From positions 1 to 6,719 of the forward strand of contig DNQL01000280.1 of the NCBI GenBank assembly GCA_003500765.1: DNA of 6,719 nucleotides, given 5' to 3'. Source of the stretch: Elusimicrobiota bacterium. Its GTDB lineage: Bacteria > Elusimicrobiota > Elusimicrobia > Elusimicrobiales > UBA9959. Shown here in pieces: positions 1,613 through 6,674 of this stretch. Numbering within the stretch: position 1 is the stretch's first letter; the number at the start of each line of letters is the position of its first letter. The notes below the pieces were generated by a model. It was not told the origin of the DNA, made no database searches, and saw nothing but the letters and a program-made list of their open reading frames with translations. The position numbers and the translations under genes are program-made.

Positions 1613-2332
1613 CTATTGGATAAGGCGCTTCATCTCGGCGACGGCCGAGCGAAGGCCGGTGAAAACGGCGCGGGAAATTATGGCGTAGCCGATGTTCAGG
1701 CAGTCCATGCCCTCGATGCGCGCGACCTGGGCCACATTGTAATAGTCCAGCCCATGGCCGGCGTGCAGGCCCAGCTTGAGCTCCTTGACCAGGAACGAGG
1801 CGAGCTGCAGTTTTTCCAGCTCCCTGGCCTGCAGCTTCTTGCCCCAGGACGAGGAGTAGGCGCTGGTGCAGAGCTCGATGGAGTCCGCGCCCAGCTTGTG
1901 CACCTTGCGTATGGCCTCGGGCTCGGGATCGGTGAAAACGGCGACCTCTATGCCGGCGCCGGAAAGCGACTTTATAACGCGCTCCAGCTCGGCGTTCTTG
2001 CCGGAGAGCTTTATCCCGCCCTGGGTGGTGACCTCGTTGGGCGATTCCGGGACCAGGCAGACCGAATCGGGCTTGGTCTTCAAAGCGAACTTTTCCATTT
2101 CGGCGGTAGCGGCCATCTCCAGGTGCAGCATGCCTTTGACCTCGGCGCGCACCCTCTCGACGTCCGCGTCCTGCACGTGACGGCGGTCGGCGCGCAGGTG
2201 CATGACTATCATCTCGGCCCCGGCGGCCAGCGCCACGCGCGCGGCCTCCACGGGGTCCGGGTTCTTCTCCCTGCGGGCCTGCCTGACGGTGCAGACGTGA
2301 TCTATGTTCACTCCGAGCTTTACCTTTTTCAT
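1613..2332 (-). CDS. pdxJ: Pyridoxine 5'-phosphate synthase
   Basis: PdxJ condenses 1-deoxy-D-xylulose 5-phosphate with 3-amino-2-oxopropyl phosphate to give pyridoxine 5'-phosphate, the last ring-forming step of DXP-dependent vitamin B6 synthesis. It is a cytosolic TIM barrel. The protein has 239 residues, the usual family length. It has NIDHVCTVRQAR (9-20), HLRADRRH (45-52, including His45), LEMA with Glu72, LVPE (93-96), HAGHGL (190-195, including His193) and NIGYAIISRAVFTGL (213-227). Two usually strict motifs differ: HLREDRRH carries Ala48 instead of Glu, and NIGH carries Tyr216 instead of His. The ATG at 2332 is preferred over a longer frame opening at 2542, because the family starts here, a GGAGG lies at the right distance, and the ATG overlaps the glmM stop as ATGA, which suggests translational coupling. 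PLP is not a GlmS cofactor, so the operon link to hexosamine synthesis is not a direct pathway link. Confidence 0.95.
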   Translation of the reverse strand: MKKVKLGVNIDHVCTVRQARREKNPDPVEAARVALAAGAEMIVMHLRADRRHVQDADVERVRAEVKGMLHLEMAATAEMEKFALKTKPDSVCLVPESPNEVTTQGGIKLSGKNAELERVIKSLSGAGIEVAVFTDPEPEAIRKVHKLGADSIELCTSAYSSSWGKKLQARELEKLQLASFLVKELKLGLHAGHGLDYYNVAQVARIEGMDCLNIGYAIISRAVFTGLRSAVAEMKRLIQ

Positions 2333-3735
2333 TTCCCCTCCACGGTATGGCGGCCGGACGCGCCCCCCTGGGCGCCGCCGGCCGATGCGCGGCCGGAATT
2401 CCTGCCGTAAAAATCTATTATCCCGTCCGCGATCTCTTTTACGAGTCCGTCGGACTCCCCTTCCACCAGCACGCGCAGCAGGGGCTCCGTCCCGGAATAA
2501 CGGACGAAGATGCGGCCCTCGCCGCCCATGCGCCGCTCCCATTCTTCTATCATCTCCTGAAAGCCGGGTATCTTTTCCAGCGCGGGCTTGGATTCCACTT
2601 TCAGAGAACGGACCTCCTGGGGGAAGCGCTTCCAGGAGGCGTGGGCGCTCATGGGGCGGCCATCCTCGCGGGCGGCGGATATCACCTGCAACGCCGTCAG
2701 GAGCCCGTCCCCCGTGGGGGCGAACTCCCGGAATATCGTATGCCCGCTGGACTCGCCGCCCAGGCTGAGGTCTTCTTTTTCGATGGCCTCGGTGACGTTC
2801 TTGTCGCCGACGGCGACCTGCGTCACGCCTATTCCCATCGAATGAAGGTGCTTTATAAGACCGCAGTTGGACATGAGGGTCAGGACCACCCTCGAATTCT
2901 TCAGCCGGCCGCCGGATTTAAGGTGCGGCGCGGCTATCGAGATTATATCGTCGCCGTCGAGCAGGCGGCCTTTCTCGTCGGAAAGCATGCAGCGGTCGGC
3001 GTCCCCGTCGAAGCTGACGCCGCACCAGGCGCCCCAGGCGGCCGTCTCCGCGCGCATCGGACCGGTCTCCAGCGCGCCGCAGCCGACGTTTATATTGGTC
3101 CCGTCGGGGCTGGCGCCCATGACCTTTATTTCGGCGCCGAGCTTTTTAAAGACGCGCGGGGCCAGCTCGCTGGCGGCGCCGTTGGCGCAGTCCAGCACGA
3201 TCTTCACGCCTTCGAGCGTGAAGCCGTCCGGCAGGGTAGAGAGCAGGTACTCCTCGTAATCTCCCGAGAAATCGGCCCGCCTGACGCCCGGCACGGCCGC
3301 GGGAACCTTAAAATCCGGCGAGGCCAGCAGCCCTTCCACGGACGCCTCTTCGGGGTCGGAGAGCTTGAGGCCGTCGGCCGAGAAGAACTTTATGCCGTTG
3401 AATTCCGGCGGGTTATGGCTGGCCGAAATGACTACGCCCAGGTCCGCCCCTTCCCTCTTGACGAGGTATGAGACGGCCGGGGTGGGGACCAGCCCGAGGT
3501 CCAGGATCTCGAAACCGCCGGCGGCCAGGCCCTCCGAAAGGGCGGCTTTTATGGAAGGGCCGGAACCCCGCGAATCCATGCCTATAATGACCGAAGGCTT
3601 GCCCTTGCGGGAGCCGTTAAGCCTGGCCACAGCCACCCGGGCGGCGGCGAAGCCTATTTTTTTGACGAAATCGGTCTCAAAGGGGTGCTTGCCCGCCAGA
3701 CCCCTTATGCCGTCGGTACCGAAAAGCTTCTTCAT
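2329..3735 (-). CDS. glmM: Phosphoglucosamine mutase
   Basis: GlmM converts glucosamine-6-phosphate to glucosamine-1-phosphate, the step after GlmS and before GlmU in UDP-GlcNAc synthesis. The 468-residue protein has the four-domain phosphohexomutase pattern. It starts KLFGTDGIRG (3-12); the phosphoserine loop is ISASHNP (103-109) with catalytic Ser106; the Mg-binding loop is FDGDADR (242-248) with Asp243, Asp245 and Asp247; the sugar-binding loop is GGESSGH (326-332); and the C-terminal phosphate loop is RYSGTEP (412-418). The GESSGH loop and the ISASHNP form favour GlmM over phosphomannomutase or phosphoglucomutase. Residues after about 443 form a Gly/Ala/Ser-rich tail of about 25 residues beyond the usual family end (about 445-450), and pdxJ overlaps that tail. 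glmM is first in a glmM-pdxJ-glmS unit and diverges from tRNA-Ser. It has no Shine-Dalgarno, and an extended -10 box sits 9 bases before the ATG. In Firmicutes GlmM binds and inhibits CdaA; here cdaA is about 2.1 kb upstream in a separate unit. Confidence 0.97.
   Translation of the reverse strand: MKKLFGTDGIRGLAGKHPFETDFVKKIGFAAARVAVARLNGSRKGKPSVIIGMDSRGSGPSIKAALSEGLAAGGFEILDLGLVPTPAVSYLVKREGADLGVVISASHNPPEFNGIKFFSADGLKLSDPEEASVEGLLASPDFKVPAAVPGVRRADFSGDYEEYLLSTLPDGFTLEGVKIVLDCANGAASELAPRVFKKLGAEIKVMGASPDGTNINVGCGALETGPMRAETAAWGAWCGVSFDGDADRCMLSDEKGRLLDGDDIISIAAPHLKSGGRLKNSRVVLTLMSNCGLIKHLHSMGIGVTQVAVGDKNVTEAIEKEDLSLGGESSGHTIFREFAPTGDGLLTALQVISAAREDGRPMSAHASWKRFPQEVRSLKVESKPALEKIPGFQEMIEEWERRMGGEGRIFVRYSGTEPLLRVLVEGESDGLVKEIADGIIDFYGRNSGRASAGGAQGGASGRHTVEGK
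2335..2341 (-). promoter_or_regulatory. Ribosome binding site of pdxJ
   Basis: GGAGGGG on the minus strand ends 2 bases before the ATG at 2332, with its GGAGG core about 5 bases away. It lies inside the last codons of glmM. Together with the ATGA overlap it fixes the pdxJ start at 2332 and rejects the in-frame extension to 2542, which lies wholly inside glmM. Confidence 0.7.
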
Positions 3736-3957: not shown

Positions 3958-4170
3958 CTAAGAGAAGAATACCAGCCCGATGTGGACAGCGCCCAGCAGC
4001 AGGCCCGCCCAGGCGAGCCTGAAATGCGCCTGCATAGGCAGCCGCAGGCCCCTGTGGTTCAGCACGGGGACCATGGCGGCCGCGAACAGGGCGGTGAAAG
4101 CCGCCATACCGACCACCTTGAACAGCGGCTCGCCGAACAGACTGAAATAGGCCAGTTCGGAGACGCTCAT
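3958..4170 (-). CDS. Small two-helix membrane protein, family not recognised
   Basis: The gene encodes 70 residues with two hydrophobic stretches, about 17-37 and 51-69. They are joined by a short polar, basic loop (NHRGLRLPMQAHFR) that probably faces the cytoplasm. No catalytic motif or known family is visible. The ATG at 4170 is chosen because it forms an ATGA overlap with the stop of the preceding gene, the same junction type used elsewhere in this window. An in-frame ATG three codons earlier (4179) would give 73 residues and has at best a weak ribosome site, so it cannot be excluded. It is the last gene of the unit starting with the glycerophosphodiesterase at 5599 and ends 25 bases before the two-way terminator. 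Co-translation with the membrane-anchored protein at 4167-4823 suggests the two may act together at the membrane; this is inference only. Confidence 0.78.
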   Translation of the reverse strand: MSVSELAYFSLFGEPLFKVVGMAAFTALFAAAMVPVLNHRGLRLPMQAHFRLAWAGLLLGAVHIGLVFFS

Positions 4171-4823
4171 TTCCCGCAATGCCTCAGCATCATCCTGGAG
4201 AGCGCGTGCTCGTAGGAGTAATTGGCGTCCAGAAGCGCCATGAAGCCTATCTTGTCGTCCGACATCAGTATCTCCACGACCAGCCTCTTCTCCAGTTTGA
4301 GCCGGAAGTCCTCCGGCACGTCGTCCTTGCCGCAGACCGCGGAAGAGGCGTAGCCCACGCTTTCGCCTCCTATGCTTTCGGCGTAGCCCTCCATCTTCCA
4401 GTCCTTTAGGAAATGATACTTCAGGGGTGTTTTCTGCTCCTGCACCAGGTCGTATAGCGCCTGCCTGACCAGCACCGGCGTCCCGGCCGACGCGATGTCG
4501 GCCACCGGCAGCACGATCCTGTCGTCCATGAGCGAGTAGCTGCAGCCGGCGGAATCCCCGCAGAACGGCGTCATCAGGTGATACATGGAGCCCGGGCCCG
4601 CAAGGTACACCTTGAATTTTCTCGAGGGAGAATAAAGCGGCGAGGCCTCCAGCCGCTCTATGGCCTTATCCAGGAATTCGACGCCCGGCTTATCCAGGGG
4701 CTTCTCCGACAGCAGCACGAAACCCCTGTGCTCGAAAGAATGCTTGAAAATAACGCCGGGATATTTAAGGAAACCCCAGTAGGGACCGCCGAGGACCAGC
4801 AAGGTCCAGAATATTATCTTCAT
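4167..4823 (-). CDS. Membrane-anchored protein resembling a gluzincin metallopeptidase with a lost HExxH site
   Basis: The protein has 218 residues. Residues 3-18 are hydrophobic and look like an uncleaved membrane anchor or signal segment followed by GPYWGFLKYP, so most of the protein would lie outside the cytoplasmic membrane. The order of features recalls bacterial hypothetical proteins with a gluzincin-like fold: an N-terminal GPY and F-x-H region, SEKPL (39-43), SPLYS (61-65), then a helix where HExxH is expected, and W-x-x-EGYAE downstream (142-149). Here the helix reads VLVRQALYDLV, so the HExxH positions are RQALY (120-124) and no zinc ligand remains there. The WKMEGYAE part is kept. 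Cys88, Cys94, Cys164 and Cys216 could form disulfides. If the comparison is right, this is a pseudoenzyme or a binding protein. The start at 4823 overlaps the glycerophosphodiesterase stop (ATGA) and has GGGAGG 10 bases upstream. That it is a gene is secure; the family assignment is from memory and tentative. Confidence 0.85.
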   Translation of the reverse strand: MKIIFWTLLVLGGPYWGFLKYPGVIFKHSFEHRGFVLLSEKPLDKPGVEFLDKAIERLEASPLYSPSRKFKVYLAGPGSMYHLMTPFCGDSAGCSYSLMDDRIVLPVADIASAGTPVLVRQALYDLVQEQKTPLKYHFLKDWKMEGYAESIGGESVGYASSAVCGKDDVPEDFRLKLEKRLVVEILMSDDKIGFMALLDANYSYEHALSRMMLRHCGK

Positions 4824-5757: not shown

Positions 5758-5853
5758 TTATCCCCCCACGATAAAGTACCAGATCAGCAGGGCTATGACC
5801 AGGGAGAGCAGCTTTATCTCCCAGTTGCGGGTGAAAAGTTCGCGGAAATTCAT
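5758..5853 (-). CDS. 31-residue membrane microprotein resembling the N-terminal anchor of CdaR/YbbR
   Basis: The gene encodes 31 residues: a short basic start (MNFRELFTR) followed by one membrane segment, NWEIKLLSLVIALLIWYF, and a stop after IVGG. The pattern N-W-x-x-K-L-L-S-L-x-x-A-L-L-x-W is what opens CdaR (YbbR) proteins, which in Firmicutes follow cdaA and regulate the cyclase through extracellular YbbR repeats. Here no YbbR repeat follows: a TAA stop comes at once and the terminator begins 22 bases later. No continuation is seen in the other frames. The ATG overlaps the cdaA stop as ATGA, and AGGAGGG lies 9 bases upstream, so translation looks real and coupled. The N-terminus should be cytoplasmic (Arg4, Arg9 and Lys14 before the hydrophobic core). 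It is either a decayed CdaR or a functional minimal partner of CdaA; the intact start, coupling and position favour function. Confidence 0.8.
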   Translation of the reverse strand: MNFRELFTRNWEIKLLSLVIALLIWYFIVGG

Positions 5854-6674
5854 TTGGCTCCGCCCTCCTGTTTGGCCTCCGGCTGCTTGGCGGCCTCCGG
5901 CCTGGCGCCCCGGCGCAGCAGGGTCTTCTCCGCCTTGGAGCGGTAGAGTTCGTAAAGCATCTTCTCCAGGTCTTCCGTGTCGACGTTGCGCTGAAGCTTG
6001 CCGTTGCGGGCCAGCGACACCGTCCCGTTCTCCTCGGAAACCACCACCACTATCGCGTCGGCTATCTCGCTGAGCCCCATCGCGGCGCGGTGGCGCATGC
6101 CGAGTATCTTGGAGAGTTCCTGCTGCTCGGTCAGCGGCAGTATGCAGCCGGCCGCCACGATGCGGTTATTGGCTATGACCGCGGCTCCGTCGTGCAGCGG
6201 GGTCTTGGGATGGAAGATGGTCATCAGCAGGTCCGTGGAGACCTCGCCGTTGATGCGGGTGCCGCTCTCTATTATGTCGCGCAGCCCCATGTCCTGCTCC
6301 AGCACCACGAGCATGCCGGTCCTGGACTCGGAACCCTGCTTCACCGCCGCGACCAGCTCGCTTATGAACCTGTACTCCTGCGGCACCAGTATGCGGCCCA
6401 GCGGGTTGGCTCCGATATTGGCCAGGGCGAAGCGTATCTCTGGCTGGAAGACGACGATGAGCAGGAAGATACCGGCCAGCCAGAACTGCTGCAGCAGCCA
6501 GACCGTGGCCGAGAAATGGAGCAGCTTGGCCAGGGAGGTGATGACGGCGAGGATGAAGACGCCCCAGACGACCTGCATGGCCCTGGTGCCCTTTATGAGC
6601 AGGATCAGGCGGTATACGATGTAGTATACCGCGAAGATGTCCAGGGCGTTAAGAAGGTAGGCCTTGAAGTCCAT
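5850..6674 (-). CDS. cdaA: Membrane-bound diadenylate cyclase (c-di-AMP synthase)
   Basis: CdaA (DacA) joins two ATP to form cyclic di-AMP, a messenger controlling potassium and osmolyte transport and cell-wall balance. The 274-residue protein has the normal layout. Three transmembrane helices lie at about 10-27, 33-52 and 58-76, followed by the FQPEIRFAL linker (76-84) into the cytosolic DAC domain. Both catalytic signatures are present: DGA in TPLHDGAAVI (158-167) and RHR in GMRHRAAMG (192-200). The LEQDMGLRD segment (125-133) is also typical. A charged Ala/Glu/Lys-rich tail fills the last 20 or so residues. The ATG at 6674 follows the stop of the upstream gene by 4 bases, with GGAGG 12 bases before it, so cdaA is part of an operon entering from the right. 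The stop overlaps the 31-codon CdaR-like gene. glmM, its usual Firmicute operon partner, lies about 2.1 kb further along in another unit. Confidence 0.97.
   Translation of the reverse strand: MDFKAYLLNALDIFAVYYIVYRLILLIKGTRAMQVVWGVFILAVITSLAKLLHFSATVWLLQQFWLAGIFLLIVVFQPEIRFALANIGANPLGRILVPQEYRFISELVAAVKQGSESRTGMLVVLEQDMGLRDIIESGTRINGEVSTDLLMTIFHPKTPLHDGAAVIANNRIVAAGCILPLTEQQELSKILGMRHRAAMGLSEIADAIVVVVSEENGTVSLARNGKLQRNVDTEDLEKMLYELYRSKAEKTLLRRGARPEAAKQPEAKQEGGAK
5863..5869 (-). promoter_or_regulatory. Ribosome binding site of the 31-codon gene
   Basis: AGGAGGG on the minus strand lies 9 bases before the ATG at 5853, within the last codons of cdaA. It is the best Shine-Dalgarno in this unit and the main evidence, beside the ATGA overlap, that the small gene is translated. 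Confidence 0.7.

What the first reader, a model, noticed from the sequence alone, without database searches (positions are those of the whole stretch)
5758..5853. CdaR reduced to its membrane anchor: a 31-residue partner gene coupled to cdaA
The gene right after cdaA encodes only the N-terminal transmembrane segment typical of CdaR/YbbR (NWEIKLLSLVIALLIW) and then stops, with a terminator 22 bases on. It has a good Shine-Dalgarno and an ATGA overlap with cdaA, so it does not look like random decay. If real, the membrane segment alone may be enough to bind or regulate CdaA, and the extracellular YbbR repeats would be dispensable or supplied elsewhere. Such a short gene would be missed by most gene callers.
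Basis: partly seen in the sequence, partly recalled or inferred. Interest (0 to 1): 0.72.

Follow-up and report, generated by a model that had tools for sequence, protein, structure and literature searches.

The report
Membrane-anchor-only partner of c-di-AMP synthase
Right after the gene for a c-di-AMP signal-making enzyme (CdaA), this bacterium and many relatives across its phylum have a tiny, evolutionarily conserved gene for just the predicted membrane anchor of the enzyme's known partner CdaR, without CdaR's usual outer domain; it likely docks on the enzyme inside the membrane, and would show that the anchor is the part of CdaR that matters most.

Summary
Confirmed and extended. The 31-codon ORF (5758-5853, minus) is real. 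In 57 family loci it is a separate short gene after cdaA in 55 and fused in frame to CdaA in 2. Over 26 disjoint pairs pN/pS is 0.23 (Fisher p 2e-40), below 1 in this frame only; identity drops from 85% to 33% (ungapped) after the stop. Its profile matches the N-terminal anchor of full-length CdaR (hhalign E 6e-12). In named genomes all 35 confirmed motif loci (of 114 pattern matches) follow cdaA: 21 Elusimicrobiota copies are short, 14 from other phyla full-length. In 340 Elusimicrobiota genomes the anchor occurs at E<=1e-4 in 155, all with cdaA, and in 0 of 117 without. No YbbR ectodomain was found in the window's genome or family. Several lineages fused the anchor to CdaA, some with one YbbR domain. 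Most likely an anchor-only CdaR that packs against CdaA's membrane helices; binding and effect are inferred. Ten literature searches listed no anchor-only CdaR. A new variant of a known kind that makes CdaR's unexplained mechanism testable.

The parts
5758..5853 (-). anchor-only CdaR microprotein, 31 aa
   Evidence: ORF; conservation and selection; profile match to CdaR N-terminus
5850..6674 (-). cdaA, membrane-bound diadenylate cyclase, 274 aa
   Evidence: TIGR00159 225.6 bits over cut-off; Pfam DAC and CdaA_N
6435..6656 (-). CdaA N-terminal transmembrane domain (residues 7-80), the likely docking site
   Evidence: Pfam CdaA_N match; docking by the TM region is from literature on full-length CdaR (passages)
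5850..5853 (-). ATGA overlap of the cdaA stop and the microprotein start
   Evidence: sequence
5863..5869 (-). AGGAGGG, Shine-Dalgarno-like, in the end of cdaA
5714..5735 (-). intrinsic-terminator-like hairpin and T run
   Evidence: consensus scan, not proof
2329..3735 (-). glmM, phosphoglucosamine mutase; the usual third gene of cdaA-cdaR-glmM, here 2 kb downstream on the same strand
   Evidence: phmmer to GlmM structures, E 6e-104

Best explanation
The ORF at 5758-5853 is a conserved 31-residue microprotein homologous to the N-terminal anchor of CdaR but without the YbbR ectodomain, and it likely works as a fourth membrane-helix subunit of the diadenylate cyclase CdaA. Shown by sequence: the gene is under purifying selection, ends right after one hydrophobic segment, follows cdaA, co-occurs with cdaA in the phylum and is fused to the CdaA C-terminus in several lineages. 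Inferred: it inserts N-in/C-out, packs against the CdaA membrane helices (the region that binds full-length CdaR in the literature) through the conserved N/W/K/A/W positions, and sets CdaA stability or oligomer state and so its activity. The fusion topology fits this, because fusion to the cytosolic C-terminus of CdaA puts the helix N-in.
For: Present in 57 of 57 family loci, 55 separate and 2 fused. 26 disjoint pairs: pN/pS 0.23, p 2e-40; shifted frames 1.24 and 3.80; identity 0.85 in the core, 0.33 (ungapped) after the stop. Of 76 further cdaA loci outside the family, 47 have a separate anchor ORF, 12 (family f15) a helix fused to CdaA with no YbbR domain, 7 a fused helix plus YbbR domain (one cut by a contig end), 9 none next to cdaA, 1 no downstream sequence. 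155 of 155 genomes with the anchor at E<=1e-4 have cdaA; 0 of 117 without cdaA have it at that level. hhalign to full-length CdaR: 97.5%, E 5.9e-12, aligned to its residues 2-32; to the fused helix of f15 CdaA: 87%, E 4.1e-6. 35 of 35 confirmed genome-contig loci have cdaA just upstream. In-frame fusions in G009, G019, G288, G319, G320. G302 keeps the anchor gene in front of glmM although cdaA lies on another contig. Literature: CdaR binds CdaA through their TM domains, and CdaA-CdaR fusions exist in streptococci (PMC10243994 passage).
Against: No experiment on this protein; translation not shown. CdaA of families f10, f11 and f19 has no detected anchor, glmM or gyrB following instead, so CdaA can do without it. 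Single fused helices match the anchor profile only weakly (E 6e-6 to 4, and four of the fused forms not at all); the link rests on the profile-profile match and motif spacing. Covariation between CdaA and the anchor shows no excess in the CdaA membrane domain (top 50 pairs 34% versus 35% expected; effective number 67). Flank charges do not give a clear orientation, and some families have lysines on both sides of a short hydrophobic stretch. The AlphaFold model of a fused form is weak in the C-terminal helix (ten-residue blocks 56-73 pLDDT, pTM 0.52).
Confidence: 0.76

Rival explanations
1. Recent nonsense truncation, assembly error or decaying remnant of a full-length CdaR gene.
For: In 14 of 14 loci from other phyla the gene here encodes a 211-414 aa protein.
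Against: In 55 of 55 separate family copies the stop comes 20-24 residues on, counted from the N of the motif; strong purifying selection; DNA after the stop is not conserved; no YbbR domain in the family.
Confidence: 0.02
2. The anchor works together with a YbbR-domain protein encoded elsewhere in the genome.
For: The window's genome is 78% complete, and YbbR domains diverge strongly: Pfam found 5 of 340 genomes, the dedicated profile 15 at E<=3.1e-10. Seven more genomes reach E 0.003-0.1 there, one of them (G166) with an anchor ORF.
Against: The dedicated profile finds none in any family f1 genome at E<=0.1, including genomes at 100% completeness; of genomes with a strong match only G330 also has a separate anchor ORF, its YbbR domain being part of a second CdaA fusion.
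Confidence: 0.1
3. The ORF serves translation coupling or mRNA end formation, and the peptide is irrelevant.
For: ATGA overlap and a nearby terminator-like hairpin in the window.
Against: Selection acts on amino acids; in other families glmM or pdxJ follows closely in most loci (48 of 80; terminators were not scanned there); in-frame fusions keep the helix.
Confidence: 0.04
4. A membrane microprotein of separate origin and different job that converged on the CdaR anchor motif.
For: Very short sequences can converge; hydrophobic helices are easy to match.
Against: Same motif spacing (N, +4 K, +11 A/S, +15 W), same gene position after cdaA, phyletic co-occurrence and fusion to CdaA. N, W, K, L of the other-phyla CdaR set were selected by the search pattern; A(+11) and W(+15) were not.
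Confidence: 0.05
5. The segment is an interfacial amphipathic helix rather than a membrane-spanning one.
For: Short hydrophobic stretch with lysines on both sides in some families, e.g. f29.
Against: In the window the best 17 residues average 2.5 on the Kyte-Doolittle scale with only GG after them; the homologous segment precedes an ectodomain in full-length CdaR.
Confidence: 0.1

Closest known systems
CdaR/YbbR (regulator of CdaA; Pfam PF07949 ectodomain)
   Same: Gene directly after cdaA; N-terminal anchor with the same motif and spacing.
   Different: Stops after the anchor; no YbbR domain at all (full-length CdaR of other phyla here 211-414 aa).
CdaA-CdaR fusion proteins of some streptococci (PMC10243994, passage read)
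   Same: Anchor physically joined to CdaA, as in G009, G019, G288, G319, G320 and family f15.
   Different: The Elusimicrobiota fusions end after the helix (f15, genus g7, three f21 genomes) or carry one YbbR-like domain (f5, f6, f12, f14, f27); the passage gives three or four YbbR domains for lactic acid bacteria.
Small single-helix subunits of membrane enzymes (KdpF, CydX; recalled, from no call)
   Same: About 30 residues, one helix, encoded in the operon of the enzyme it would join.
   Different: No sequence relation known to me; the partner here is a nucleotide cyclase and the homology is to a larger regulator.
CdaA (TIGR00159)
   Same: The cyclase of the window is a canonical CdaA, over cut-off; entry 9g69 holds a 292-residue diadenylate cyclase with a phosphoglucosamine mutase.
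   Different: Sequence searches found no solved structure of CdaA with CdaR.

Membership tests
CdaR/YbbR family | One or more YbbR domains (PF07949) | tested here: not met
   Protein ends after the anchor; no Pfam or NCBIfam match
CdaR/YbbR family | N-terminal anchor with the CdaR motif | tested here: met
   hhalign 97.5%, E 5.9e-12; motif positions
CdaR/YbbR family | Gene directly follows cdaA | tested here: met
   Overlaps cdaA by ATGA
CdaR/YbbR family | glmM is the next gene | tested here: not met
   In the window glmM is 2 kb away with other genes between, and no glmM motif lies in the 0.6-2.5 kb fetched downstream in the 57 family loci; in 43 of 80 other Elusimicrobiota loci a glmM motif follows within 0.5 kb
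CdaR/YbbR family | Binds the CdaA membrane region | not testable with these tools
   Literature passages show it for full-length CdaR only
CdaR/YbbR family | Changes c-di-AMP synthesis | not testable with these tools
   For full-length CdaR both activation and repression are reported (PMC8573169 passage)
CdaA diadenylate cyclase (the neighbour) | DAC domain with N-terminal CdaA_N membrane domain, TIGR00159 over cut-off | tested here: met
Translated small protein | Evidence of translation | not tested
   Only indirect: selection on codons

The most novel reading that the evidence does not exclude
CdaR's functional core is its membrane helix: throughout Elusimicrobiota a 24-48 residue helix alone is the fourth-helix subunit that controls CdaA through helix-helix contacts, repeatedly becoming part of the enzyme by gene fusion, while the YbbR ectodomain is an optional sensor added or lost around it.
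Probability: 0.5. Interest if true: 0.86.

Novelty: new variant of a known kind. Interest (0 to 1): 0.74.

Why it matters
How CdaR regulates CdaA is stated to be unclear (PMC8573169 passage), with activation and repression both reported. A natural version with the whole ectodomain gone, conserved through much of a phylum, isolates the membrane helix as the conserved part and gives a minimal partner of about 30 residues to test. A cultured carrier is likely at hand: one genome with the gene (G292) is a single contig of 1,588,979 bases, exactly the length published for Endomicrobium proavitum.

Tried and rejected
Covariation between CdaA and the anchor over 137 pairs (123 Elusimicrobiota or near plus full-length CdaR loci taken together): no signal for the membrane domain, inconclusive. 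AlphaFold of a fused CdaA (family f15; 64 of the 120 listed proteins aligned): helix at 267-286 but weak confidence, contacts cannot be read, not used as evidence for docking. So invariance of N, W, K and L in other-phyla CdaR (13 of the 14 aligned) is biased by the search pattern NW[QE][LI]KL[LI][AS][LF]; only A(+11) and W(+15) count as independent. Decayed-gene reading rejected. The taxon of the 51-67 residue anchor proteins with polar tails (P0112 and others) could not be found.

Literature: ten searches (one search was on Endomicrobium only). Titles and starts of abstracts were seen, and passages of eight papers, plus the whole text of PMC4505116. None described an anchor-only CdaR; 'Elusimicrobi' with 'diadenylate cyclase' gave 0 papers. 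The library holds open-licence papers only. The two-hybrid papers (Rismondo 2016, Gibhardt 2020) were not read (the first is not held); I rely on passages citing them.

Full report
What was claimed. All stated details hold: coordinates, translation, ATGA overlap, AGGAGGG and a terminator-like hairpin 22 bases on. The upstream gene is a canonical CdaA.

Where it is. The window lies in a 2.1 Mb, 78% complete, unnamed assembly. Names come from a scan of named genomes: the contig of an 'uncultured Elusimicrobia bacterium' has the same length, 57,762 bases, as that of G041 of the window's family f1, and a named Elusimicrobia bacterium (WAS_Bin_5, L172) has a CdaA 93% identical to the window's. So the host is an Elusimicrobiota bacterium (inference from these matches).

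Conservation in the family. CdaA was found in 58 of 59 genomes of family f1; one of them (G053) is an 81-base contig-end fragment. In the 57 loci with downstream sequence, 55 have a separate ORF, 27-33 residues counted from the last ATG before the motif, that ends 20-24 residues on from the N of N-W-x-[IVM]-K; 2 (G009, G019, one genus) have the segment as the C-terminus of CdaA. In G004 it lies about 0.3 kb downstream. Entropy by codon position is 0.71, 0.26 and 1.28 bits. In the window's genus dS is 0.35-0.92 and dN 0.014-0.051 over the six pairs. Over 26 disjoint closest pairs pN/pS of the 24-codon core is 0.23 (Fisher p 2e-40), against 1.24 and 3.80 in the shifted frames, and identity falls from 0.85 to 0.33 (ungapped, so a low estimate) after the stop. 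This is a selected protein, not a remnant.

The rest of the phylum. A profile of 20 anchors matches 170 of 340 genomes at E<=0.01; CdaA occurs in 223 of 340. At E<=1e-4 I count 155 genomes, all with CdaA; of the 117 genomes without CdaA none reaches this, three reach only 2e-4 to 0.01. I did not open the locus in each of the 155. I examined 76 further cdaA loci outside f1 (L065-L140): 47 have a separate anchor ORF, 12 (family f15) have a helix fused to the C-terminus of a divergent CdaA and then stop, 7 have helix plus one YbbR-like domain fused to CdaA (one cut by a contig end), 9 have no anchor next to cdaA (families f10, f11, f19 and G302), 1 has no downstream sequence. The fused class was read partly by eye: the single sequences score weakly (E 6e-6 to 4) and L131 and L138 give no hit. 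Three more fusions are in G288, G319 and G320, while L105 and L111 (genus of G288) and L110 (genus of G319 and G320) keep separate genes. For G288 a frameshift error in the assembly could imitate a fusion, since the two genes overlap in different frames in L105 and L111; G319/G320 and G009/G019 each agree between two genomes. No tree was built, so the number of independent fusions is an inference. In G302 the anchor gene sits in front of glmM while cdaA is on another contig.

Relation to CdaR. The anchor profile aligns with residues 2-32 of 13 full-length CdaR proteins from other phyla at 97.5% probability, E 5.9e-12, and with the fused helix of 64 f15-type CdaA at 87%, E 4.1e-6. In the scan of named genomes 114 stretches matched the pattern and 35 were confirmed: 21 Elusimicrobiota (one, L173, titled only 'bacterium' and assigned by its contig length, equal to that of G029), all short, and 14 from other phyla, all the start of a 211-414 residue protein; cdaA lies within about 0.35 kb upstream in 35 of 35. 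Four of the 14 long proteins were tested, and all four carry YbbR domains over Pfam's cut-off. The spacing N, K(+4), A/S(+11), W(+15) is kept with few exceptions in 55 f1 anchors, 47 other anchors, 13 CdaR and 64 fused forms. N, W, K and L in the CdaR set were fixed by the search pattern, so only A(+11) and W(+15), in 13 of 13, are independent.

No ectodomain elsewhere. PF07949 finds nothing over cut-off in the window's genome (one match of 12.3 bits), 0 of 101 relatives and 5 of 340 in the phylum. A profile of first YbbR domains (A5) finds 15 of 340 at E<=3.1e-10, all in f5, f6, f12, f14, f15 (one) and f27, seven more at E 0.003-0.1, and none in f1; several of the 15 contributed rows to A5 and match by construction. 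Of the 15 only G330 also has a separate anchor ORF; its YbbR domain is in a second, fused CdaA.

Mechanism. Passages in PMC10243994, PMC6368335 and PMC8573169 state that full-length CdaR binds the membrane region of CdaA and that how it regulates CdaA is unclear. Combined with co-occurrence and repeated fusion, the most likely reading is that the microprotein is a helix subunit of CdaA. Fusion to the cytosolic C-terminus implies the helix runs from inside to outside, as in CdaR. What it does to activity is not known; stabilising CdaA or setting its oligomer state is my inference. Against or neutral: no covariation signal, weak structure model, ambiguous flank charges, and families with CdaA but no anchor.

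Novelty. Ten searches of the open-licence library listed no paper on an anchor-only CdaR. Homologues exist in protein databases, most of the 120 listed unnamed or 'hypothetical protein'; one 33-residue member is named 'YbbR domain-containing protein' (P0018) though Pfam finds no domain in it. As the YbbR domain is absent, the microprotein is not a YbbR-family member by Pfam's definition; it is an anchor-only homologue, a new variant of CdaR. A testable cultured carrier is likely Endomicrobium proavitum: G292 is one contig of 1,588,979 bases, the published genome length (whole text read), and has the ORF (L104).

Noticed in passing
L120, L122-L126, L131-L136, L138, L139, e.g. L122:2348-3391: In f14 and f15 loci with enough downstream sequence the fused CdaA is followed, often with overlap, by an ORF of about 345-360 residues with a DHPDPDALASAW-like motif; the one tested (L122) has DHH and DHHA1 domains. 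A cyclase and a putative c-di-AMP or pApA phosphodiesterase in one operon.
   Followed up: partly
window 4167-4823 (-); similar-looking ORFs in L011, L013, L037, L051-L056: Uncharacterised protein of about 220 residues with no Pfam family over cut-off; by eye, similar ORFs lie soon after the anchor gene in other family loci.
   Followed up: no
P0097, P0098, P0109, P0112, P0241-P0247: A group of 51-67 residue anchor-like proteins, the two read with a polar tail; taxon unknown, possibly an anchor-only CdaR outside Elusimicrobiota.
   Followed up: partly
L065, L098, L100, L108, L109, L116, L119, L129: Families f10, f11 and f19 have CdaA but no detectable anchor gene; a glmM motif (f10, f11) or gyrB motif (f19) follows within 140 bases.
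   Followed up: partly
L060 and L089 (genome G330): One genome carries both architectures: cdaA plus anchor gene, and a CdaA-helix-YbbR fusion.
   Followed up: partly
L064 (genome G331): A YbbR-like match (23.1 bits) inside a 903-residue ORF, in a genome without a CdaA match.
   Followed up: no
window 3958-4179 (-): 73-residue ORF with a weak VKOR match below cut-off (15.7 bits).
   Followed up: no
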